Below are positions 13,276 to 25,807 of a stretch of DNA of 64,000 bases, one piece after another. The stretch comes from Alloascoidea africana (Eukaryota; Ascomycota; Alloascoideomycetes; Alloascoideales; Alloascoideaceae), in contig JAKTTT010000026.1 of NCBI GenBank assembly GCA_030581615.1, positions 1-64,000 of the forward strand, read 5' to 3'. Position numbers and translations under genes: made by a program. The notes beneath the pieces were generated by a model, which searched no databases, was not told the origin of the DNA, and worked only from the letters and a program-made list of their open reading frames with translations. The stretch's first letter is position 1. Each line of letters opens with the position of its first letter.

Positions 13276-14824
13276 TGTTGGTGTTGTGGGATGTTGAGGT
13301 TGAGGTTGAGGTAGATGTTGATGTTTCAGGGGCATTCGGAGTTCGCGTAAGAGGAAAAAAAGAAAGAGAAAGGGAAAGGGAAAGGTGAAAAAAGATAAAA
13401 GATAAAAGAAGGTCGGTCAAGGAGTGACTACGGCAAGAAAAGCGAACGTGGGTGCGAAAGTGTGAGAAAGCGAAACAGGAAGAAAAGAACAGAGAAATGA
13501 AAAGGAGCAAAAAAGCTCCTGCGAAGCACTTCACTCTGATACACGCCTGGGGCAGGGTAACCCCGTGGATTTGCTGCTGGATTTGCTGCTGGATTTGCTG
13601 CGAACTGGGATTTTTTTCAGGTTGCTTATTATAGTTATCAAGGGGAAGGGGAGGATTGCACAATGAGGCTGTTATTTCCTTTGGGTTCTAGATCCTAAAA
13701 GTAAATCTATTTGTGGTGATTAATAGTTGAAAAAGGCGGGATATGTATATGCTTGCACAGCCACCAAACATGATTAAAAGTGGCTTGAAATCCTGAATGG
13801 TCAACAATTGATACAATCGGATAGAAAAAAGTTATGGTAGAATTGAACATTAAGATATTACGAGTATTTAGGATTGTATGGGAGGGGGAGGAATTTGGAT
13901 TGGACGTTTACAGGTATTAAAGTTTGGATGAACAACACACACGCTACACAACCTTGGTGATGTGCAAACTAATAACTAATTGAGATTCTTAGTCAAGAAT
14001 CACCTTGAGTTTGAGTTCAAATACAAGACAAGGTTGATTCAATATTCAAAGCCTTTTGGGTGAAATGTTTGTAATAATCGCCTAGACTTGTACCACATTC
14101 GATTGGATACATTACATTAGTTCCAGATTAGGCTTTTATTTCCGATCCCTCGGTTTTTCAGTCCCCTTGAAGAGATACATTAAAGGTCAATGAGAACAGC
14201 ATAACAAAACTTTATAGGAAATTTTGAATCATTGGTAGAAGCATATACTGTATTACAAATAACTGTTATATCTCTGATACAGATACATGTGTACATACTT
14301 TGTCTAACTATAAACACATTTACAGTAAATGTATTTGCAAAGCAGTTTGGTCGACTAAAGTCTGTTGTTGTAAATCATATAACCCTGCAAAACATAGATT
14401 CATTCTGAAATTTTTGACAATTGACATCCCATAGTATCATTTTTTTGGTTCCAAAAAAAAACATGGAGTTATTAAAAATACACAATACAAACTGGCATCC
14501 ACGGACAATGGAATTTACAAATTACAAAAAATTAAAACTAAGTAAATCATCAAATTGCCTAAAAAGTGGTATATTAAAAAAGAATCAGAATTATATACGT
14601 CATTTCAAATACATGATTGGGATTTAGTTCACTGTGTTCAATGGGAAAACTCGTAGACAACCACGCAACAATGGTATTTGCGGAAAGATTCTCGGCGTTG
14701 TAATTTATATATAAAAATGAAGGGAAAAAATGATCAAGCCGTAGTTGAATGAATAGGAATTGGGGTTTTGTATGTTTACATTTTTTGTATGTATGTGTTT
14801 TAAAATTTTGTGTCGTTTTTGGTT
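13276..14824. other. Intergenic: WSC promoter plus 3' flank of family copy A
   Basis: 13276-13660 is purine-rich with short AG repeats and three copies of a GGATTTGCTGCT-like unit near 13566-13600. The part 14500-14660 is homologous, in reverse, to the downstream regions of family copies B and D. No gene was recognised. Confidence 0.5.
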
Positions 14825-15478
14825 TCATTTCTCGGGTCTCTGAGACTCTTGCCTCTTAAAAACAGAACGAACTTTGCGGCCCAGTTTCTTTAACTGATCT
14901 CTCCCGCGGAAACTCAAGGGAGATTTCTTCTGGTTACCGGACTTTGTTCCATTGGCATTTGCCTCATGAGGTAACACCAGTGGGAAAGATTCGTTCTCGG
15001 GTTCATCACCAAGACCGTTATCATCTCTATCTGAGGATGGCTCCTGATCCAAGCTTAAATGGCTAATGTCATCATTCGAGGAATAATCAAGTGACCATTC
15101 GTCATACCTAACACTTTCTTCATCAGAACTACTAGAATAATCCTCTTGACCATATCCACCCATCTTTTTCGAATTCTCCAAACTCATGAGGGAGTCGTTT
15201 TCATGGTCTGGCTCCGGGAAAAAATAGTTTTCCATAAGGTGGAAAGTGGGAAGAAGATTGAAAAGCGTGGGATTTAACTCCTCCTTTGGGTCAGAATCAG
15301 AAGTGGGTTGAGTAGTTGGTAGGAAGGTTTCACCATGAATGTCTCGATACGATGCTTCTTCCTCATGATGATGTCCTCTCCTCTCATCCATCATAGAGAT
15401 TGGGTCTCCCGGGTCTGAAGGTTGGTTATCGTGGTTTTCCGTATCGACAATGTCAAATATATAGGTTGAACGACGCAT
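14825..15478 (-). CDS. Unrecognised lineage gene family, copy A
   Basis: 217 residues. The start at 15478 (MRRSTYIF) is chosen because the DNA before it (CTAAACCC ... GTCTATTACCATTATG) aligns with the leaders of copies B and C; the frame is open 34 codons further up. The protein is acidic and Ser-rich through most of its length (EDYSSSSDEESVRYDEW). It ends in a strongly basic segment, QKKSPLSFRGRDQLKKLGRK, followed by VRSVFKR. That tail is shared with copies C and D. No signal peptide, membrane segment or known domain is visible. Copy A is the most diverged of the four and lies head-to-head with copy B. Function unknown; the basic tail might bind membrane, nucleic acid or a partner. Confidence 0.6.
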   Translation of the reverse strand: MRRSTYIFDIVDTENHDNQPSDPGDPISMMDERRGHHHEEEASYRDIHGETFLPTTQPTSDSDPKEELNPTLFNLLPTFHLMENYFFPEPDHENDSLMSLENSKKMGGYGQEDYSSSSDEESVRYDEWSLDYSSNDDISHLSLDQEPSSDRDDNGLGDEPENESFPLVLPHEANANGTKSGNQKKSPLSFRGRDQLKKLGRKVRSVFKRQESQRPEK

Positions 15479-15583
15479 AATGGTAATAGACAAAGGTTTC
15501 ACAGGGTTTAGTTCGGGTAGTTCACGGATTTGAGAGTGATACAAAAAACGATTGGGGATTGGGAGAAAAAAATTTAGCACTTT

Positions 15584-15596
15584 CCTCTTCTTTTAA
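15584..15596 (-). promoter_or_regulatory. Conserved core-promoter element, copy A
   Basis: On the minus strand it reads TTAAAAGAAGAGG, preceded by CAACGACTTGGAAAAGAAG. It corresponds to the TATAAAAGGAGA element of the other copies and lies about 115 bp before the start codon. Confidence 0.45.
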
Positions 15597-16142
15597 CTTC
15601 TTTTCCAAGTCGTTGTTAGACTAGGGGTAACAATCTGGTGAATTAACCTATTTTTTCTTTTCTTTGTATGTGGGGTGTTTGTCAAAGACAGTAACTTTAG
15701 TTATAAATTCAAAAGAAAAAACTTTATTCGGATCTTCTCATCGCATTCATTGTATCTACATGGATACCAACACTTAAAGATGCCAAACTAAGAACTACTG
15801 GCGAGAAAATACAATGTAGTGTATTCAAATCAAGTTTACAAGTATCTTTATCTGAAAAATGAATGTGCTAATACTAAAATTTGCCACAAAACCAAGCTCT
15901 TGCAGGTCTTTGATCCTTTAGTTACCAATTCTAGAATCATCTAAATGAACCAGCTCTTGGTTTTTTTACAACCTTAAAACTGTATAGGGGTTTTGCGCCC
16001 TTTTCATGTTTATTTCTGCTCTTACATTCTTTTTGTCAATTCAGTTAGGTGTATATGTGTAATGTTACGTGCATTTTACCAAAAACTTGTCCAATTGCCA
16101 CACCTGCAGTTGACTACCGATAGCATTATCGGTGGTATTGCA

Positions 16143-16337
16143 TTATACTACTGTATCTGATATACACTCCAGGGGTAATAATATAAGCGCTGTGTAGATT
16201 TTGTTAGAAATCAAGGTCTCGCTCGTTGCATTCTTGGACACAGATGGTGAAGCCAAAACCTTAACCCTGTAGCAGAGCCTAATTAGCCCTTCGTGCAACA
16301 ATTTTCTTATCTTTTGGACATTATTTTGATCATGCAA
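16143..16337 (-). pseudogene. Relic fragment related to 18605-18931
   Basis: The reading KNATSETLISNKIYTALILL matches NEDTDTLVSRKTYTALNFL at 18605-18931 in the opposite orientation, with CTACACAGCGCTTA identical at base level. Neither place has a full-length gene. The family is not recognised. It is probably part of the same duplicated block as the four-copy family. Confidence 0.4.
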
Positions 16338-16934
16338 AGTATTTCATAGATGTATTTTTAGCATTATTTGATTAAGAAGTTTGACTGTTTCTCGAATCTG
16401 CTCACTACACACGCAAAGTGTGGAGGTTAATGCCGACGAACAAAGGTTCAACATTCGGATAAATCCCCCAACTGCTTACTGGGACAACAAGAAAAATGTG
16501 GATATTCACAAAGTAATATTTAACCAGCCTTGTGTAGAACAACTTTAACAACACTTCATCGTCGTCATTCAGGCCGGCCTGAACAGGGTTATTAAATACA
16601 CAACTGAGGTTGAAGTGGTATATAGAGAGACTGTCAGACCGCTTGTAAAAAATTACCGATAAATGTTTAGATAATCCAAAAGAGATTAATCCCCTTAATT
16701 ACTAAGTTGGTCTGTTTTTGTACTGGTTAGGTCGTTGTTTCCCTTTTTGGTAGTTTTAAGTTTTGACATATACATGTAGATACAATACGAGGAGCCTATT
16801 CCATTTTTTTCGATCGAACTCTAATCCCTTGACTAACCGATTTAAGATCAATTAGAATTCAAAGACAAAGCAAAGAGTCAAAAAGCAAAATTTATCATAT
16901 TGACAGCACAGTATAACAAAAACTTGGAGAGGAA

Positions 16935-16946
16935 TATAAAAGGAGA
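16935..16946 (+). promoter_or_regulatory. Conserved TATA-like element, copy B
   Basis: TATAAAAGGAGA about 105-115 bp before the ATG. The identical element occurs before copy D and close variants before A and C, so it is probably the core promoter. Confidence 0.6.
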
Positions 16947-17049
16947 GGGAGATGTCCTCTTCCTCTGTCCCAGCTACCAACTACTTTTTACCACGCTTTG
17001 TGAATTATCCAAACTACTCTAAAACCCTTTTAAACTTATCTCTATTACA

Positions 17050-17735
17050 ATGGTGAACCCTTTCGTCGAAGACTTTGACCGTATCAATGCGGACAACTTC
17101 CACAGTCAACTTCCCAACCCGGAGGACATGTTGGACGAGGTTATAAGATATCTCGAAGATGAAACAGCATGGAGTCAAGCATCCAATGGAGAACCCTACC
17201 CATCAACTCGCCCACCCCCGCCCCCTCCAGAAATTGCTCCAATTGCTGACCAATCGCTTGAACAAGTAGACCCCCTTTCTCCTGATTACCAAGATTTCAA
17301 TCAGTTTTCTCTTGAGGAGTCAAGCTTTTCCTCTGAATCGAGCGAAATGTCAGATTATAGTTATGACTCCTTTGAACTTATCAGCAACAGCATGGATGTT
17401 GATAATTTGCCCACCATGTTTGAATTTGATGGAATGGACTATTGTAAAATCTGCGATAAAGAAAATTTTGATTCTGATGAATCGTCACTTGAAGAATATG
17501 CCTCTCCGGAAGCGGTTAACCCTGTGGGCTTTGACAACGATACACACACAGAGGACCGCCCGAATGAGGATTTCGTTCCATGGTTTAACCGCGTTTAAGA
17601 CCTTTTAAGGCCAATTCCGATGAAGCAAAGCGTGGCAAGAAAATAGAACATTCCTGGCGTTCTCACAGAAAAGATTAGTTAAAGAGGATGAACCGCAAAC
17701 CACGCTCTGTTTTCAAGATGGAATAATCTCAGGAC
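17050..17735 (+). pseudogene. Unrecognised lineage gene family, copy B (decayed C-terminus)
   Basis: An open frame of 182 codons (17050-17598) has the family layout: a MVNPF start, a Pro-rich box (STRPPPPPPEIAP, compare SPTTPPFPDIVP in copy C), and an acidic Ser-rich middle. It stops before the basic tail. The tail is still recognisable downstream in another frame: KRGKKIEHSWRSHRKD, then a TAG where C and D have CAG (Gln), then LKRMNRKPRSVFK. So copy B has one frameshift and at least one stop relative to its relatives. It may still yield a truncated protein lacking the tail. Promoter and leader are conserved. Unknown function. Confidence 0.6.
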
Positions 17736-17869
17736 TTGAACCCCCTTCCCCCAACACACACACAGACAATCAAAAAATCAAAAAACACACAAAATTTTGA
17801 CATACAAAAGCATAGAAAAGCATAGAAACTTACAAAAATTCGAAAACTCAAAATCTTTTTTTCTATTTC

Positions 17870-18075
17870 TACTATCAGAACATAACCGGGAGTCTCTCCA
17901 CGGAATCAAAGCGATGCAATGATTGAGCCGCTGGTGATCTTTTCCACCAAAAGCAGTAAAATGAATTCCAATCATGCATTTGCAATGGAGTATACAGTTC
18001 TGTTCTTTTTAATATACCACTTTTTAGTGATTTATTGTTTTGCAAGATTCTTTTTCGTATTTCGTACTTCACATA
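17870..18075 (+). repeat. Arm of large inverted duplication (partner 22620-22860)
   Basis: Shares long identical runs with the reverse complement of 22620-22860, for example around GATTGAGCCGCTGGTGATCT and TTTTAGTGATTTATTGTTTT with few changes. These are the downstream flanks of copies B and D. A weaker relative lies at 14500-14660, 3' of copy A. Confidence 0.8.
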
Positions 18076-18379
18076 GATTCCCACCGAAGATACTTGTCTT
18101 CAAGCCTCAAAGGCACGCATGGCAATGACACATAAATCTAGTCATGGCTTAGTATTCTTCCAGTTGTTGCCTCCTACTTCCGTAGAGTCTCGGCTAATTC
18201 CATCCTTGGCAAACAGGATAATTCCGCGTTTTTACTCAAAATGGTTTTTATAACTTCTCACTTCAAGTGTGTAATGGGGAACTAGGAAAACTTGTAAATA
18301 TTAAGATAGCGTTTATCTGAACAAAATTCCAAATATTTGGTAGCTTCGAATGGATAATCTCCACGCTACATGGAATACA

Positions 18380-18500
18380 GTCTAGTTCAGAGCTATATAA
18401 ATAACAATTGCCCAACTTGTTTATCTTAATGAGAATATTCAACAATTCTAGAGTCTGCTTGAAGCCTCCTACGTTCACAATCCTCTAGAGTATCTTTAAC
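18380..18500 (+). repeat. Dispersed repeat remnant, possible LTR fossil
   Basis: Resembles 21635-21760: a TATAAATA motif, then about 50-60 bp later TCAAC(A/G)ATTCTAG and a TTG(A/T)AGCCTCC block. The arrangement recalls the end of an LTR, but no partner repeat or internal region is seen. Old and broken if real. Confidence 0.3.
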
Positions 18501-18604
18501 TTCCCAGACTAGGCGGCTCCCTTGGGTTCGTATACATAGGCCACGACTATGTAACTGGGCACTTTCCCTGTTCTGGGATGGTAAGTCATTGTTAGACTCA
18601 AAGA

Positions 18605-18931
18605 GTGGCAGCAGTTTCTTTCCATTTTCCCCTTCGTAATCCAAGCTCCATGCTTGAAACCAGAATGCGTGTGTGTTCAGGCTTCCAACCCAATCTACTT
18701 CACAGAAGCAAGCATTTTAAACACCTGGGGCACAATGAAGACATATGGAGTACTTTTAGCAGTCTGGGTATCACCAAAGATAAGAGCAGTTTGATGAGGG
18801 TTGAGGTTTCTCTTAATGAAGACACCGATACCTTGGTTTCTCGCAAAACCTACACAGCGCTTAACTTTTTAGTTGCAAAATATTTATCAGATTTATCACT
18901 ATATTGCGATTCCACAAACAAATACTGGTGA
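18605..18931 (+). pseudogene. Relic fragment related to 16143-16337
   Basis: A 108-codon open frame. The part from about 18790 to the stop (SLNEDTDTLVSRKTYTALNF, then YLSDLSLYCDS) is alike in sequence and codons to the fragment at 16143-16337. The first half has no counterpart there. The family is not recognised; it could be an intact small gene, but the partner is shorter and differs, so a relic is more likely. Confidence 0.35.
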
Positions 18932-20354
18932 ACCTTGAATTTAGATATGTCAATCGGACGAGCTTTTCAAAAGCTTGGATCATGACGCCTGGCAAAAATA
19001 GTGTACCAAAAAATTGTTTTGTCGCTTAACCCAGCCAGGCCACGTCTCAAATTTTGCAAAACAATAACAAACTTGGTCGAATCAGTAAATGCTCTGTTAA
19101 AGAATTCTGCTTCCTGTACGAATAACCGAAACAAGTGATTGAGAGTATCTGGCTATTTTACTCTCTTAATAATGTGTGCTACTATTACTGTTAAGCAGGG
19201 CCCTATTCCCTACATTATTGGAATTTTTCATTACTGAATTTTTACCCTAGGTCATTTCAAAACCTTGCACTTGAAACTACTACTGTACTTATTCTCGATA
19301 GTGTATTTCATGCAAAATCATTCACTTCGTACACACTTGTCTTTAAGGATCACTAATCGGTTCTGGAAGTTGTTACAAAAGAAGACCAAAAGAAGACAAG
19401 GCAAAGTTTAAGAAGGAAAACTCAAGAAGACTTGAAGAGGATAACAATACATAAAGCATGTATCTTTCTATCTTAGAAAGGAATATGGCAGCCTATGCAC
19501 CAAAAGCATTTCCATTGCTTTCCGGCTCATTCTATTACACAAAAGAGCGTTGTCTAATGAAATCAAAATTTAGTTTGGATGGATTACTTTTAGAACAAAT
19601 TTCCTAGCTTCTTTGTTATAGTATTATTTTTTGGAATAACTATTAACCACTTTAACCTTGTTAAAAGGAATTATATCAGCGACAATTGTCATACTTATAG
19701 TATATTGTGTTGGAAATCCCTTGGGAGTCATAGACTAGATTGAAAACACAGTGTGAAACATTATACTAGTAGAGCGCAGTATAACGCATATCGCTAATTC
19801 CTTAGCTACTTTATGCAATCGGAGGTAGGAAAAATTGCCCGAGGTAGGTAGTAAAACTGATAAAATAAATCTAAATTTTACACAAACACAGAAAAGATAT
19901 GGCGATTTTTCTGAGGAGGAAAGTAAAAACAAAACGCATTTCAAGAACTTTCTAACAACTTCAAGGCTGTGAATTGAAATGCTAATTCATTTAGAATGAA
20001 ACAAGCCCAAGTATTGGTAACATAAGGATCAAAACCTCTAGAGCTTAGTTATGTTTCCGTTGCACAATGTGAAAAAGCTTTCTTCCCTAAATTGCCAAAC
20101 TTTTGTGTCTCGCTGGTTAGATCTTGGTTTCCCATTTTAGTAGTTATAAGTGGTTACATCCATGCAGATTCATGCAGACACAATGCGATGAGCATATTTT
20201 CGAGTAAAGTTTTCTTTAAATCTATCTCTGCTCCCTTTGACAAGCAGAGTTAAAAGCAATTGAACCATTGAATTTCAAAGAACATTCAAAGACACAGCAG
20301 AAAAGTCAAATTTACCAGATTGTTACAATAGCATACAACGACTTGGAAAAGAGC

Positions 20355-20366
20355 ATTAAAGGAGAA
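20355..20366 (+). promoter_or_regulatory. Conserved TATA-like element, copy C
   Basis: ATTAAAGGAGAA, preceded by CAACGACTTGGAAAAGAGC as in the other copies, about 125-135 bp before the ATG. Confidence 0.5.
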
Positions 20367-20488
20367 GGAGGAGCCCTTTTTTTTCTTTCCCAACCACATA
20401 CTACTTTGTACCACTCTGTGTCACTCTCAACTTCGTTAACTAGCCAATATAAACAATTTCAAATTCTCTAAAACTTACATCTATTACG

Positions 20489-21163
20489 ATGATGAACGCT
20501 ATTACTTATCCACTTAATCCTTTCAATGTCGAAACCTACCTCAACAAGCCTCCCGATTTGGAGGCCATGAAGGCCAAGATGATAAGACGTCTCGAAGAGG
20601 TTAAAGAATCATGTCAAACCTTCCATGGAAACCCCTACTCGCCAACTACCCCACCCTTTCCAGATATTGTTCCAACCGCCGACCCACAGCTGGAAACAGT
20701 AACCTCCCGGTTATATATTCATCCTAATCTCGTTTACCATACAAACAGCTTTCATTTCCAGCTGCCAAACCAGTCCTCTGGATCGACAATAGTGCTAGGC
20801 CATCATAGAGACTACCCTTCGGGCCATATCAACAATATGATTTTTGAGAATCCGAGCCGTATGGATGAATATGGTCAAATGGATGAATCCAGTACCTATG
20901 ATGAACAAAATATTACTGATGATGAGCGCCAATGGTTGCTTGATGGGTATCCCTCTGTCGGTAGAATGAGCAATTCGAGCTTTGAACAGGGACCACATAC
21001 CGACAGAGATGTCAGTCTAACTGAACCATCCGAGCGCGAATCCTCCTTTATGAGACCCCATGAATCAAAGCGCGGCGACAAGAAGAAACCCTCCTGGTGT
21101 TCTCGCAGAAAAGATCAGTTGCAAAGGCTGAAGCACAGAGTACGTTCTATTCTTAAGAGGTAA
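20489..21163 (+). CDS. Unrecognised lineage gene family, copy C
   Basis: 224 residues starting MMNAITYPLNPFN, like copy D's MMNTFTYLLNHFN. Layout: a short basic-acidic helix (MKAKMIRRLEEVKES), a Pro-rich box (PYSPTTPPFPDIVP), an acidic middle, then two blocks nearly identical to copy D: YDE/KQNITDD-QWLLD and SFEQGPHTDRDVSLTEPSER. It ends with the basic tail KKKPSWCSRRKDQLQRLKHR, then VRSILKR. No signal peptide, membrane segment or known domain. The close match to D at protein level with drift elsewhere suggests selection. Its downstream similarity to D stops near 21240, where unrelated sequence begins. Function unknown. Confidence 0.7.
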   Translation: MMNAITYPLNPFNVETYLNKPPDLEAMKAKMIRRLEEVKESCQTFHGNPYSPTTPPFPDIVPTADPQLETVTSRLYIHPNLVYHTNSFHFQLPNQSSGSTIVLGHHRDYPSGHINNMIFENPSRMDEYGQMDESSTYDEQNITDDERQWLLDGYPSVGRMSNSSFEQGPHTDRDVSLTEPSERESSFMRPHESKRGDKKKPSWCSRRKDQLQRLKHRVRSILKR

Positions 21164-21634
21164 ACATCTTAGGACTTTACAAAAACATTCACAACCCAAG
21201 AGAAAAGGAACAAAAATATAAAAAAGAATACAAAAGCATGTAGGAGTGGACTTTACAACTGATCACCTCCCGTTCTAATCACCAATGCGGTTTTTGATAT
21301 GAAACGGTTTTCACCATTGCGGTATCAGCGTGATAGATAAAACGGTAATATTTTAGATTCGAGATCTCTAAAAAGTGAGGCTTTTTTTAATATATATAAT
21401 GCTATTTTGATGAGTTATTATGATCTGGTTGTTCACCACGCACCTTTGTAGTTCGATTTGTTGATCGTTCCACTCTGTGGATCCTTCTTTTCTTAACATA
21501 ACAGCCCGCGAGTTAGTTGCAAATTAATGCCACGATCACCCGCTCTAACTTGTTACTGAGAGCCCGTGTCTTACACTACGAGGGGGGTATCCTCGGACGG
21601 GTGATCTCCTTAATCTCTAGTAGTGAGACTTAGA

Positions 21635-21760
21635 TAGGTCTTTATAAATAGCCCATGTGTTCCCTCATGGGGAAGAATCAACGATTCTAGTGATTGTTTG
21701 TAGCCTCCCACCCTCTCGAACCTTTACAGACCCGAGAGCAGCTTGAGTGTTCCACCCCAT
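21635..21760 (+). repeat. Dispersed repeat remnant, possible LTR fossil
   Basis: Counterpart of 18380-18500: TATAAATAGCCCA, then TCAACGATTCTAG and TTGTAGCCTCC. The family cannot be named. No coding part is seen next to it. Confidence 0.3.
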
Positions 21761-22619
21761 CTAAAAGACTATAATATTTAGCAAGGAGATGATTTATTCC
21801 ATATCTCAGCCTTGAGTATTATTCTATTTAAACGCTTGGTTCTATGACGAGTTTTTGAATCTGCTCAGAGCTCATCACAAACACGCTTTAGAGAGTGAGT
21901 CTTCGGATTCTGGAGGCATGTAGAGAAGTTTATCGAGATGAGAAAGAGTCAATTGTCAGCAAATCTCAGACGGTATTCCTTCTATTAAAGTATTTCCAAA
22001 GACCACGAATACTGTTTGCACGAGATAAATTATACCTGCAGCTTTTGTAAGATGATGGCTTATCGCATGTGTAATATGAGAGCTCTATCGTACTCCACAT
22101 TCCCGTTCCCCTACCTAAACCCGCTGTAATGCTCTAGGAGGAGAAGATGGTTATGGTATTAGAGTCACTCCTTGAGTCTAAGATTGCCTTGACCTCCAAG
22201 AGCAGCGAAAGGGCCTAGCTATATAGTCCGGTCTATGGATACGTACATGCCTGGAGATTCCCGACATCATATATGTAACATGCCCTTCGTCTAGATTAGA
22301 TAGGTTAGACTTTTAGACATACTAGAATTATATCTCCTCTTTATAAATGTACTACTTCTTACTGACCATCTTACAAGGGAACCCATCCTATAGCATGCTT
22401 CCAAAACCAGACTATTCCCATCACCAGAAGTAACGAATTACAATCGCAACCTTGAGTAGGCCCGCCAGCTTAACTGTTCGTCATGAACAAATGCAACAGC
22501 GATCCAGTCTATTAGTAATGAACTTGAGAAATTCTAAGCAAGTATATTGAGTATCAATCAACAGAATAGGACCTTGCTTTGCCAACTAGCGATTAGGGGT
22601 TTGTTTTGTTGTAATCGCA

Positions 22620-22860
22620 GAGAAGCAGCAATTAGTTATGATCTATGTGAAGTGCGAATTACAAATTACGAAAAATATCTTGATAAAACAATAAATCACT
22701 AACAAGTGTTACATTAAAAAGAATAGAACTGTATACGCCATTGCAAATGCAAGATTGGAATTCATTTTACTGCGTTTGGTGGAAAAGATCACCAGCGGCT
22801 CAATCATATCACTTTCATTCCGCGGAGAGACTCCCGGCTTTGCTCTGATAGTAGAAATAA
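22620..22860 (-). repeat. Arm of large inverted duplication (partner 17870-18075)
   Basis: Downstream flank of copy D. The reverse complement matches the downstream flank of copy B with few differences over about 200 bp. Confidence 0.8.
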
Positions 22861-22958
22861 AGAAAAAGGATTGAGTTTTTGAAAGTCTGTATGCTTTTGT
22901 ATGCTTTTTATACTTTTGTGTCTTTTTTTCTCGGTTTTTGGAGTTTTTTTGTAAAATT

Positions 22959-23801
22959 CTAAGATGTTTCCTTCTTAAAAGTAGAACGAACTTTGCGGTT
23001 CCACCTTTGCAACTGATCTTTTCTGCGAGAACGCCAGGAGGGTTTCTTCTTGTCGCCGCGATTTGCGTCATGGACATTGGCTTCATGGGGTCCCATAAGG
23101 GAGGATTCGCGCTCGGATGGTTCAGTTAGACTGACATCTCTGTCGGTATGTGGTTCCTGTTCAAAGCTCGAATTGCCCATTCCACCGACGGAGAGATGCT
23201 CATCAAGCAACCATTGGCTCTCATCAGTAATATTTTGTTTATCATAGGTACTGGATTCATCAATTTGACCATTATTCTCTGCTTCATGATCTTCTTCGAT
23301 TATAGAGTAATGCCCCACTTGAACTTCTTCTTCTTCTTCTTTTATAGCATAATACCCCAGTTGATCGTTTTCATCTTCTTCGGTTATAGAATAAAGTTCC
23401 ATTTGTTCGTCATCATATTCTTCAGTTGTATAACCCTCCATGCTGTCATGGTCCGTGGGATAGTTTTGAAGACACAGCGCTTCGCACAGCACTGCGCTCA
23501 GGCTAGCGCTTAGGCCAGGGCACTGATTTGACGGCGAGAGATAAAAGCTGCTCAGATTGTGGTAACGAGAAGAGGGTCTAAGTAAAAACGGAAGCTTTAT
23601 CAAAGTCACACATAGAGTAGTAACTGGCCCTATTTCTGGAGGAGTTGGTAGGTAGGTATCATCGGGGAAGACTTGATCAATTCCTGCATACGCACTAACG
23701 ATAGTGATTGTAGCCTCTTCTATCTCATAGCTGAGACGGTTGTTGAAGTAAGTTACCGTATTATTGAAATGGTTAAGGAGATAAGTAAAGGTGTTCATCA
23801 C
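22959..23801 (-). CDS. Unrecognised lineage gene family, copy D
   Basis: 280 residues, the longest copy. It starts MMNTFTYLLNHFN and has a Pro box (LPTPPEIGPV). The middle carries three tandem units of about 14 residues (ELYSITEEDENDQL, GYYAIKEEEEEVQV, GHYSIIEEDHEAEN), each a tyrosine followed by an acidic run. Then come the blocks shared with copy C (YDKQNITDESQWLLD, SFEQEPHTDRDVSLTEPSER) and the basic tail KKKPSWRSRRKDQLQRWNRK, then VRSTFKK. No transmembrane segment or known domain. Convergent with copy C. Leader and TATA element are conserved with B. Function unknown. Confidence 0.7.
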   Translation of the reverse strand: MMNTFTYLLNHFNNTVTYFNNRLSYEIEEATITIVSAYAGIDQVFPDDTYLPTPPEIGPVTTLCVTLIKLPFLLRPSSRYHNLSSFYLSPSNQCPGLSASLSAVLCEALCLQNYPTDHDSMEGYTTEEYDDEQMELYSITEEDENDQLGYYAIKEEEEEVQVGHYSIIEEDHEAENNGQIDESSTYDKQNITDESQWLLDEHLSVGGMGNSSFEQEPHTDRDVSLTEPSERESSLMGPHEANVHDANRGDKKKPSWRSRRKDQLQRWNRKVRSTFKKETS

Positions 23802-25807
23802 GGTGAGAGGGATATATTACAGGGGTGTTTTGTTTGAATAATTCACAAAGTATCTCACAGAATAGCGTTTAGTTGAGAAAGAGGAAGAGGACATCTCAAT
23901 CTCCTTTTATATTTTTCACCAAGTCGTTGTAGTCTGGTGAATTAACTAAATTCTTTTTCGTTGTCTCTAACTTTTCTTTGGAGTTCAATTGTTCCTAAAC
24001 TTGTTTGGAAAAAGAGAACAGATATAGAGTCAAAGAAAACTTTACTCAAATAGGCTCATACCATTCTTGTATCTGCATGTAATGTCAACACATGTAGATA
24101 CCAAAAAGGGAAATAAATATCTAACCAGCGAGAAAGTCCAACAACGTACTAGTGATTTATGGAACTAAGCTCTTTCAGATTATCTAAATATTTATCGGTC
24201 TACATTTTCACAAGCGCTATGGGAAACTTCTATCTAAAGATCTCTTTCAGCGACAAAGTTGGTCTCTAGGGTTCTCAATCTGTGCCATTTGTTTCATCCA
24301 AACCGTGTTTGTTTTTTTCTTTTGGCTTTAATCCCGACCTTGAAAAAAAAGTTCAATTATCTGAGTTATTCATGTAAGAAAGTATGCTTAGGGGATGAAT
24401 TTTCCACCGTTTGAGTAGGAGTAGTAGATGACCGGATAGAACGAAGCAACTATTCATTTACAGAGATGTTACGAATTGGGATTGACGGCATGTCTCTTTG
24501 CGTTTGATATCCAAATAATTGAGAAATGAGCAAAGGAAAGGAAAGATGATAGAACTTGTTTTAAAGTAGGAAGTGCTTCCTTCCTCCATAGACAGATTTC
24601 GATTGCAAGCAAATGCATTAAAGCTCAAAATGATCACCCTAAATGTTCTTTCGGTATTTGATTGAATTGCTTAAGCGTCATTTAACAAAGTTGGATTGAA
24701 GTAGTCGAAAAAAAGCTGAGCTTCTGTTTGGGAACTGGAATAGAAAAAGAGCTGGTTGGCAAGAATTAGCCCTAAAGAGAGAGAACTTGAATCAATTGCG
24801 ATTGTTGTGATTCCAAGTCTAACAGAGCAGAGCCTTGAGGATATCAATGATCAGAATATTAAAGAGAACCCTAGGCGTTTGGCTCCTTGTAGCTTTGTTA
24901 TTATCCATTCTTCCATTAGTATTGTACCTGGTACCGTTCCTACCAACATTAAGTTGTCATATTCTTCTAAATAGGTTTTTGGCTGCCCAGTAGGATTGCC
25001 AATGTCCCATCTCCGTTCAAGTCGGAGTTTGACAAACTGTCTTATCACTTCAAATTCCCTGTGACAATTGTGTTTTTGTTCTTTTTGCTCATTGACTAGA
25101 GTCGCTGGATCAGAGAATCAAATTAGTCTCCCATTAGACTCAAGCGTCTTGGATAGTGGAAAGTGACTCTGAACTCATCCCAAATCCACCAGTTTGTCGT
25201 CGGATGGTCTCTCAATATCCATTTTTCATTTGCTACCTGGACCCAAACCCTGGTGGTTACTGCACCTGTCTAAACGGCTCATGACCGATGTTTAACGTTT
25301 TGTATCTGGCGTGGATGACCTACACGCTTATGTCCTTTTGAATTGATAATTTCAGAATCTTGAGCAGGTAACCCACAAACCGATGTCCAGTGAATGTCGG
25401 TACTGCTCAATAATTTATGCAAACAGCAGATGAGGAAACGTGATACTTTGTTTATCGAGGTAGAATCAGCCCAGATTTTGTCAAAATTACGGGAGCGGCG
25501 TCAAGATAACGTCAAATTTACAATCCAAACATCTACAGTATATCTGCCATGTTCCATTGAGCTTTTCACGATAATTGTGAGAGAAGCTGGGAACATAAAA
25601 ATGACATTGTTTAAATAGTGTCAACATAACGATCATGTTTTGTGAATTAATCTGGGTTTATTGTAGAATATCTACAGACACCAGATACCACTTCACTTCA
25701 CATTACCAACAGACTTGTTCTTTCCTCTTTGAAATTTCTGGATCAGTTGTGGTGCTCATAACAAACAAAAGGAGCGGTTTAAATTTATTTTATTTTCGAA
25801 ACTATAC
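23802..25807. other. Intergenic: copy D promoter; remainder without a gene
   Basis: 23802-24150 is the promoter and upstream block shared with the other copies. 24151-25807 has only short open frames without recognisable motifs. Confidence 0.5.
23900..23911 (-). promoter_or_regulatory. Conserved TATA-like element, copy D
   Basis: Minus-strand TATAAAAGGAGA, identical to copy B, about 100-110 bp before the ATG and preceded by CAACGACTTGG. Confidence 0.6.

What the first reader, a model, noticed from the sequence alone, without database searches (positions are those of the whole stretch)
14825..23801. Undescribed four-copy gene family with a basic C-terminal helix
Copies A (14825-15478 -), B (17050-17735 +), C (20489-21163 +) and D (22959-23801 -) share a start, a Pro-rich box, an acidic Ser-rich body and a tail of the form KKxPSWxSRRKDQLQRxxRK then VRSxxK. 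They sit in a 9-kb block with no other intact gene. C and D keep whole blocks almost unchanged (QNITD-QWLLD, SFEQ-PHTDRDVSLTEPSER) while the DNA between drifts, which suggests selection. No known domain is visible. Seen: the similarity. Inferred: recent local amplification of a lineage-specific gene.
Basis: partly seen in the sequence, partly recalled or inferred. Interest (0 to 1): 0.78.

Follow-up and report, generated by a model that had tools for sequence, protein, structure and literature searches.

The report
Four-copy fast-changing yeast orphan genes
Four old, fast-changing copies of an unfamiliar yeast gene sit side by side; the two that look most alike most likely do so because one stretch was copied between them, not because that stretch is specially protected by selection.

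Summary
Four homologous units (A-, B+, C+, D-) lie at 14.8-23.8 kb of what looks like a budding-yeast contig; searches of that genome found no fifth. Homology covers upstream, coding and 3' flanking DNA. Pfam, NCBIfam, PDB, Rfam and the viral, prokaryote and plasmid collections gave no credible relative; other fungal genomes could not be searched.

Two inferences fail. The C/D "conserved blocks" are one sharp tract (C 20871-21184), nearly identical at synonymous sites too (dS 0.044, dN 0.114), while the 5' halves are 54% identical: most likely gene conversion, not purifying selection. D shares a second tract, in the 3' flank, with B. The duplications are old. B is broken: its ORF ends before the tail, which lies in another frame with an in-frame TAG.

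A, C and D are probably real genes: simulated neutral drift rarely leaves such frames open. Residues look barely constrained. D's model shows one confident C-terminal helix; A's does not. Most likely function: disordered acidic adaptors docking through a basic tail; low confidence. Interest is modest.

The parts
14825..15478 (-). Copy A: intact ORF, 217 aa, acidic body (net -32 without the last 36 aa), basic tail (+10 in the last 36 aa); most diverged copy
   Evidence: AF2 model low confidence throughout
17050..17598 (+). Copy B: truncated ORF, 182 aa, acidic body without tail
   Evidence: one change of phase against C, at the tail
17599..17735 (+). Copy B relic of the tail, out of frame with the ORF and with an in-frame TAG
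20489..21163 (+). Copy C: intact ORF, 224 aa
22959..23798 (-). Copy D: intact ORF, 279 aa, with imperfect 42-nt in-frame repeats coding an acidic stretch
20871..21184 (+). C side of the C-D conversion tract (3' part of the coding sequence to just past the stop)
22947..23272 (-). D side of the C-D conversion tract
17828..18077 (+). B side of the B-D tract in the 3' flank (80-96% identical in 50-column steps)
22642..22886 (-). D side of the B-D 3'-flank tract
14559..14634 (-). Copy A 3'-flank segment, 84% identical to B 17954-18027; the highest identity among A's blastn matches
16670..17049 (+). Upstream region of B, homologous to the upstream regions of C (20109-20488), D (about 23799-24178) and A (about 15479-15858)
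   Evidence: 63-72% identity in the six pairs over aligned columns; the D upstream query found the B and C upstream regions, not A's, and nothing elsewhere in the genome
22965..23036 (-). D C-terminal helix (residues 255-278); pLDDT means of the last three blocks 80, 89, 69
21588..22390 (.). Fragments of several dispersed repeats between C and D (21588-21728; 22070-22124 plus 22249-22390 interrupted by 22125-22248)

Best explanation
This is an old, single-locus cluster of a fast-evolving orphan gene in a budding yeast. SHOWN: four homologous units with shared upstream, coding and 3' flanking DNA; three open frames and one truncated one; sharply bounded tracts of high identity (C-D in the 3' coding part, B-D in the 3' flank), with D a mosaic of the two. 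INFERRED FROM THIS (about 0.75): non-allelic gene conversion between the copies made the near-identical blocks. INFERRED (about 0.75): A, C and D are or were until recently translated and selected to stay open, while most residues change freely. INFERRED FROM COMPOSITION AND ONE MODEL (about 0.3): the product is a disordered, acidic, Ser-rich adaptor that is held at an anionic surface (membrane, nucleic acid or an acidic partner) by a basic amphipathic C-terminal helix, with the acidic body acting as bait or as a cis-inhibitor of the tail; B would then be a tail-less dead or decoy copy. The stated confidence is for the evolutionary account; the molecular function alone is about 0.3.
For: Relatedness and single locus. 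Conversion: C-D tract dS 0.044, dN 0.114 over 97 codons, against dS about 1.0-1.3 in the rest of the same pair; 2 of 28 fourfold sites differ; permutation 0 of 10,000 for C-D with either B or A as third sequence, and for B-D with either A or C. Open frames: after 0.2 neutral substitutions per site 16, 18 and 6 of 3000 simulated A, C and D frames stay open, after 0.3 it is 1, 5 and 0 (substitutions only, no indels); coding-region indels are multiples of three in 7 of 9 (A-C), 7 of 9 (A-D) and 6 of 10 (C-D), against 4 of 8, 4 of 10 and 3 of 8 upstream. Free residues: in no pair of six are mismatches significantly commoner at codon position 3 (in-phase columns of a DNA alignment); the 5' coding part is less identical than the upstream 380 bp in six of six pairs. 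Body and tail: net charge of the last 36 aa +10 to +12, rest -14 to -39 in A, C, D; D helix 255-278, block means 80, 89 and 69, with the rest of the model low; amphipathic moment of the tail rarely reached by shuffles for A (4 of 2000) and D (58 of 2000).
Against: Purifying selection on residues is not seen in the codon-position counts, and in the C-D tract dN exceeds dS, which is what non-functional sequence or diversifying selection gives; with 27 differences it is not significant (P 0.07-0.18; bootstrap of the ratio from 0.96 up). Protein-guided NG86 gives ratios below 1 for A-C (0.56, bootstrap 0.36-0.80), A-D (0.38, 0-0.62) and A-B (0.54, 0.31-0.89) but not clearly for B-C (0.94), B-D (0.83) or C-D (0.79); such alignments favour low dN, and the A-D one has long gaps. 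The tail alone (29 codons) shows no special constraint: ratios 0.33-0.65 in the five pairs other than C-D, with wide bootstraps, and B's untranslated tail gives ratios like the others. C-D and A-D have stretches that align out of phase. Synonymous codon use is no help: B and C lie above and A and D below the 95% point of the intergenic null, and wrong frames score as well. The amphipathic moment of C's tail is ordinary (416 of 2000 shuffles), and A's model shows no confident helix (tail blocks about 52-56). Low pLDDT from four-row alignments may reflect the thin alignment rather than disorder. The permutation test assumes an even rate along the sequence; weaker B-C and A-B signals may be rate variation. 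No expression data.
Confidence: 0.6

Rival explanations
1. All four copies are decaying duplicates with no present function; A, C and D just have not yet acquired stops.
For: B is broken; codon-position mismatch is flat in six of six pairs; C-D tract dN/dS 2.6; the untranslated tail of B gives dN/dS like the tails of the open copies; codon use uninformative.
Against: Neutral drift to about the observed divergence leaves very few frames open, and three copies are open; most coding indels keep phase, fewer do upstream. The simulation had substitutions only, so it is lenient to this rival.
Confidence: 0.22
2. The C/D blocks are kept by strong purifying selection on the protein.
For: Amino-acid blocks between C and D look almost unchanged.
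Against: Synonymous sites in the block are at least as unchanged as replacement sites (dS 0.044 against dN 0.114; 2 of 28 fourfold sites); the same part of A is only 66-68% identical to C and D at DNA level; high identity starts and stops sharply.
Confidence: 0.04
3. The proteins are nuclear acidic coactivators: the aromatic-acidic body is an activation domain and the basic tail a localisation or nucleic-acid-binding segment.
For: 39-aa windows that satisfy the published acidic-activation-domain rule (formula 1 of PMC10550315, passage seen) occur in A (5 of 179), B (17 of 144) and D (28 of 241); of 14 other window proteins two have any. With only the first two terms of the rule all four copies have some, and again 2 of 14 others.
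Against: C has 0 of 186 under the full rule; composition shuffles do as well for A (184 of 500) and B (138 of 500), less often for D (31 of 500); uL18, a ribosomal protein, also passes.
Confidence: 0.15
4. C-D identity comes from a recent partial duplication of the 3' end rather than conversion.
For: Only the 3' part is near-identical.
Against: C and D also align, at lower identity, through the 5' coding part and the upstream region at the matching place, so the tract replaced a homologous stretch; a partial duplication would need an exact landing. Direction of transfer was not determined.
Confidence: 0.1

Closest known systems
Lineage-restricted (orphan) gene families of yeasts
   Same: Short, quickly changing, no recognisable domain; [quoted passage not shown]
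   Different: Here multi-copy at one locus with conversion tracts; range over species untested
Paralogue clusters shaped by interlocus gene conversion (as in PMC3966223, search listing and start of abstract only)
   Same: Bounded tracts of near-identity between otherwise diverged paralogues, mosaic copies
   Different: The copies lie partly in inverted orientation, tracts are about 250-320 bp, and the genes are of unknown function
Acidic transcriptional activation domains (PMC10550315, passages seen)
   Same: A, B and D have windows that meet the charge and W/F/Y/L rule
   Different: C has none; no DNA-binding domain found; for A and B explained by composition
Proteins with basic amphipathic membrane- or partner-binding helices (recalled, no call)
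   Same: Basic C-terminal segment with hydrophobic residues spaced along it, predicted helix in D
   Different: Not confident in A, moment ordinary in C; no sequence relationship to any named protein found

Membership tests
Paralogue cluster with gene conversion | Homologous copies at one locus | tested here: met
Paralogue cluster with gene conversion | Bounded tracts with low synonymous divergence between otherwise diverged copies | tested here: met
   C-D dS 0.044 in the tract against about 1.0-1.3 outside; permutation 0 of 10,000
Paralogue cluster with gene conversion | Discordant relations in orthologues of a sister species | not testable with these tools
   the search tool states that this genome has no relatives here
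Lineage-restricted orphan family | No known domain or relative | tested here: inconclusive
   No credible match in Pfam, NCBIfam, PDB, viral, prokaryote or plasmid collections, but fungal genome databases were not available
Functional protein-coding genes | Open frames maintained beyond neutral expectation | tested here: met
   A, C, D; B's tail not open
Functional protein-coding genes | Purifying selection on residues (dN/dS clearly below 1, excess of position-3 changes) | tested here: inconclusive
   NG86 below 1 for the pairs with A, no significant position-3 excess in six pairs
Acidic activation domain proteins | Rule on charge and W/F/Y/L in 39-aa windows, all intact copies | tested here: not met
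   A, B, D pass, C has 0 of 186 windows
Basic amphipathic helix proteins | Confident amphipathic helix in all intact copies | tested here: inconclusive
   D yes, A no, C not modelled; moment rarely reached by shuffles in A and D, often in C

The most novel reading that the evidence does not exclude
A locus under diversifying selection: small acidic proteins with a basic docking tail whose coding sequence changes faster than its own upstream region, with gene conversion shuffling the tail module between copies, as expected for genes in a genetic conflict (selfish element, self-recognition or viral defence) in a budding yeast.
Probability: 0.1. Interest if true: 0.6.

Novelty: new member of a known kind. 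Interest (0 to 1): 0.3.

Why it matters
It is a clear case where near-identical protein blocks between paralogues look like selection but silent sites point to a conversion tract. It also offers a compact test of how an orphan yeast gene keeps its frame while its residues change freely. If an excess of replacement changes is confirmed between species, the locus would be worth testing as a conflict gene.

Tried and rejected
Known family: Pfam and NCBIfam (four proteins each) and PDB (protein D, and the four-row profile) gave nothing credible; weak hits such as the ZN292 zinc finger and TBX2-3 models in B (E 0.34 and 5.3), two hypothetical-protein models in B (E 0.05-0.07) and two PDB chains (E 0.5-0.7) were dismissed. 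Viral and prokaryote collections: 40 and 27 pattern matches, none confirmed; plasmids, with protein D only: no match. The phage collection and the PHROGs and PADLOC libraries were not searched. More copies in this genome: none besides the four; C23 matched B at E 0.2 only (C was searched as DNA, not as protein). A nucleotide profile and a six-frame protein profile of the family on the window gave significant matches only at the four units. Functional RNA in the conserved 3' flank: no Rfam match up to E 1, folding no better than shuffles (z -1.3, 0.5, -1.2, 1.5). Codon usage as a coding test: uninformative, since several known genes score no better than background and wrong frames score as well. 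PAC-like 8-mer (name recalled) in the A and C upstream regions at matching places: two of six occurrences in the window, altered in B and D, so left as a lead. A phosphodegron-like LPTPP in D (recalled) is not shared by the other copies and was dropped. Literature searches for a matching family turned up nothing specific in the titles and abstract starts listed (10 of 13 papers, 10 of 61, 3 of 3, none); these cover only the open-licence library.
Full report
SETTING. The window is the start of contig C26 of a 23.2-Mb genome in 138 contigs. Ten neighbouring ORFs were scanned; nine match Pfam, among them Mob1/phocein, WSC, septin, phosphatase, SKG6, GATA and bZIP. The uL18 protein scores highest against one entry whose organism I did not identify (9spj, 563 bits), then yeast chains (about 555-557 for what I take as S. 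cerevisiae and Kluyveromyces, 532 for Candida), against about 455 and 424 for what I recall as Neurospora and S. pombe chains. I therefore take it as a budding yeast; the species is not identified. No relative of this genome is held, so nothing could be compared between species.

OBSERVATION. Four units are related. Pairwise blastn within the window gives 1e-123 (C-D), 4e-92 (B-D), 6e-27 (B-C), 4e-16 (A-D) and 2e-8 (A-C); A and B are joined only through the 3' flank (5e-15). In the whole genome protein D and the D tail find all four places, protein A finds the other three (B's tail only at E 0.07), B's ORF finds C, and the DNA of C finds D; the only other place is C23 at E 0.2 with B. The ORFs are 217 (A), 182 (B), 224 (C) and 279 aa (D). 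B's ORF stops at 17598; the tail relic lies in another frame with an in-frame TAG. Homology is not limited to the coding part: the 380 bp upstream are 63-72% identical in the six pairs, and A, B and D share the 3' flank (63-84%), while C's 3' flank is unrelated beyond roughly 75 bp.

THE C-D BLOCKS. In the codon alignment of the block (97 codons) there are about 2.5 synonymous and 24.5 replacement differences: dS 0.044, dN 0.114. The 5' parts of the same two genes have dS 1.0 and 1.3 and dN 0.6 and 0.8. Of 28 fourfold sites two differ. Identity in an independent pairwise alignment climbs from 0.44-0.66 to 0.80 at 20856-20905 and 0.84-0.96 up to 21158, is 0.74-0.76 to 21266 and then 0.36. With variable sites permuted, no shuffle of 10,000 gave a tract as strong (score 60.8 against a maximum of 18.3 with B as third sequence; 56.8 against 21.0 with A). 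So silent sites are as alike as replacement sites and the likeness is bounded: most likely a gene-conversion tract. A second tract, between B 17828-18077 and D 22886-22642 in the 3' flank, also beats all permutations (33.2 against 21.3 with A; 64.4 against 19.4 with C). D is therefore a mosaic. Of the eight permutation tests run, two further ones beat all shuffles narrowly (B-C 19.8 against 16.2, A-B 17.5 against 17.0), A-C was reached by 94 and A-D by 2344 of 10,000; I do not interpret these, as uneven rates can produce them.

ARE THEY GENES? For: at 0.2 neutral substitutions per site, 16, 18 and 6 of 3000 simulated A, C and D frames stay open, and at 0.3 it is 1, 5 and 0; at 0.1 it is 175, 171 and 98. 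A and C are 57% and 68% identical in the two coding parts, which by the same simulation is about 0.5 substitutions per site, or 0.25 per lineage. Coding indels are multiples of three in 7 of 9 (A-C), 7 of 9 (A-D), 6 of 10 (C-D), upstream 4 of 8, 4 of 10, 3 of 8. A and C align in phase over 98% of columns, C and D 90%, A and D 75%. Against: mismatches are not significantly commoner at position 3 in any of six pairs (lowest P 0.054, in B-C, where position 3 is lower; in A-D position 3 is slightly higher, 0.44 against 0.40). Protein-guided NG86 ratios are 0.54 (A-B), 0.56 (A-C), 0.38 (A-D), 0.94 (B-C), 0.83 (B-D) and 0.79 (C-D). For the tail alone (29 codons) they are 0.61, 0.55, 0.65, 0.56, 0.33 and 1.46 in the same order, with wide bootstraps, and B's untranslated tail is not set apart. 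The ratio of 2.6 in the C-D tract is not significant (P 0.07-0.18). The best reading is frames kept open with residues largely free, that is a fast-evolving protein; recent decay of all copies remains possible. The 5' coding part is less identical than the upstream region in six of six pairs, though alignments near 50% identity are noisy.

PRODUCT. Net charge of the last 36 residues is +10 (A), +12 (C) and +10 (D), of the rest -32, -14 and -39. AlphaFold2 on D (four-row alignment) gives mean pLDDT 42.5 with one confident element, the helix 255-278. On A it gives mean pLDDT 48.4 and no confident helix. With four rows, low pLDDT may mean a thin alignment rather than disorder. The helical moment of the tail is reached by few shuffles for A (4 of 2000) and D (58 of 2000) but by 416 of 2000 for C. 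I propose a disordered acidic adaptor with a basic docking tail at low confidence. The acidic-activation-domain rule of PMC10550315 (passages seen) is met in A, B and D but not C, for A and B no better than composition predicts.

SURROUNDINGS. Between C and D lie pieces of dispersed repeats: 46 non-self matches for the C-D spacer, of which 26 are copies or part-copies of 21588-21728 (only 40 of 62 candidates scored). The 22125-22248 piece interrupts another repeat, and L039 shows the uninterrupted site with a two-base overlap. Another dispersed piece lies downstream of B. They may have helped rearrangement; this is inference.

VERDICT. A real, old, single-locus family with conversion tracts; selection on the blocks is not shown; novelty across yeasts cannot be judged with these collections. 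Interest 0.3.

Noticed in passing
window 22070-22390: A 124-bp piece (22125-22248) of a longer dispersed repeat interrupts a second dispersed repeat; the uninterrupted site exists in L039 and the junction shows a two-base overlap. Looks like a templated insertion or a truncated mobile element.
   Followed up: partly
window 21588-21728: A piece of about 141 bp with copies or part-copies in at least 26 other places of the genome at 80-89% identity; nature unknown, possibly a solo long terminal repeat or a short interspersed element.
   Followed up: no
window 18500-18638: Dispersed repeat piece downstream of B with copies on C40, C4, C58, C105 and C73; part of it (18526-18607) matches the piece downstream of D at 22166-22246.
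   Followed up: partly
window 14559-14634 and 17954-18027: 3'-flank segment with TTTTTAATATACCACTTTTTAG is the best kept part between A and B (84%), though no RNA family or stable fold was found.
   Followed up: partly
window 23289-23430: Three imperfect 42-nt repeats in frame in D, coding an acidic Tyr/Glu-rich repeat not seen in the other copies.
   Followed up: no
window 15737 (minus) and 20185 (plus): GCGATGAG, resembling the PAC promoter element (recalled), at matching places upstream of A and C, altered in B and D.
   Followed up: partly
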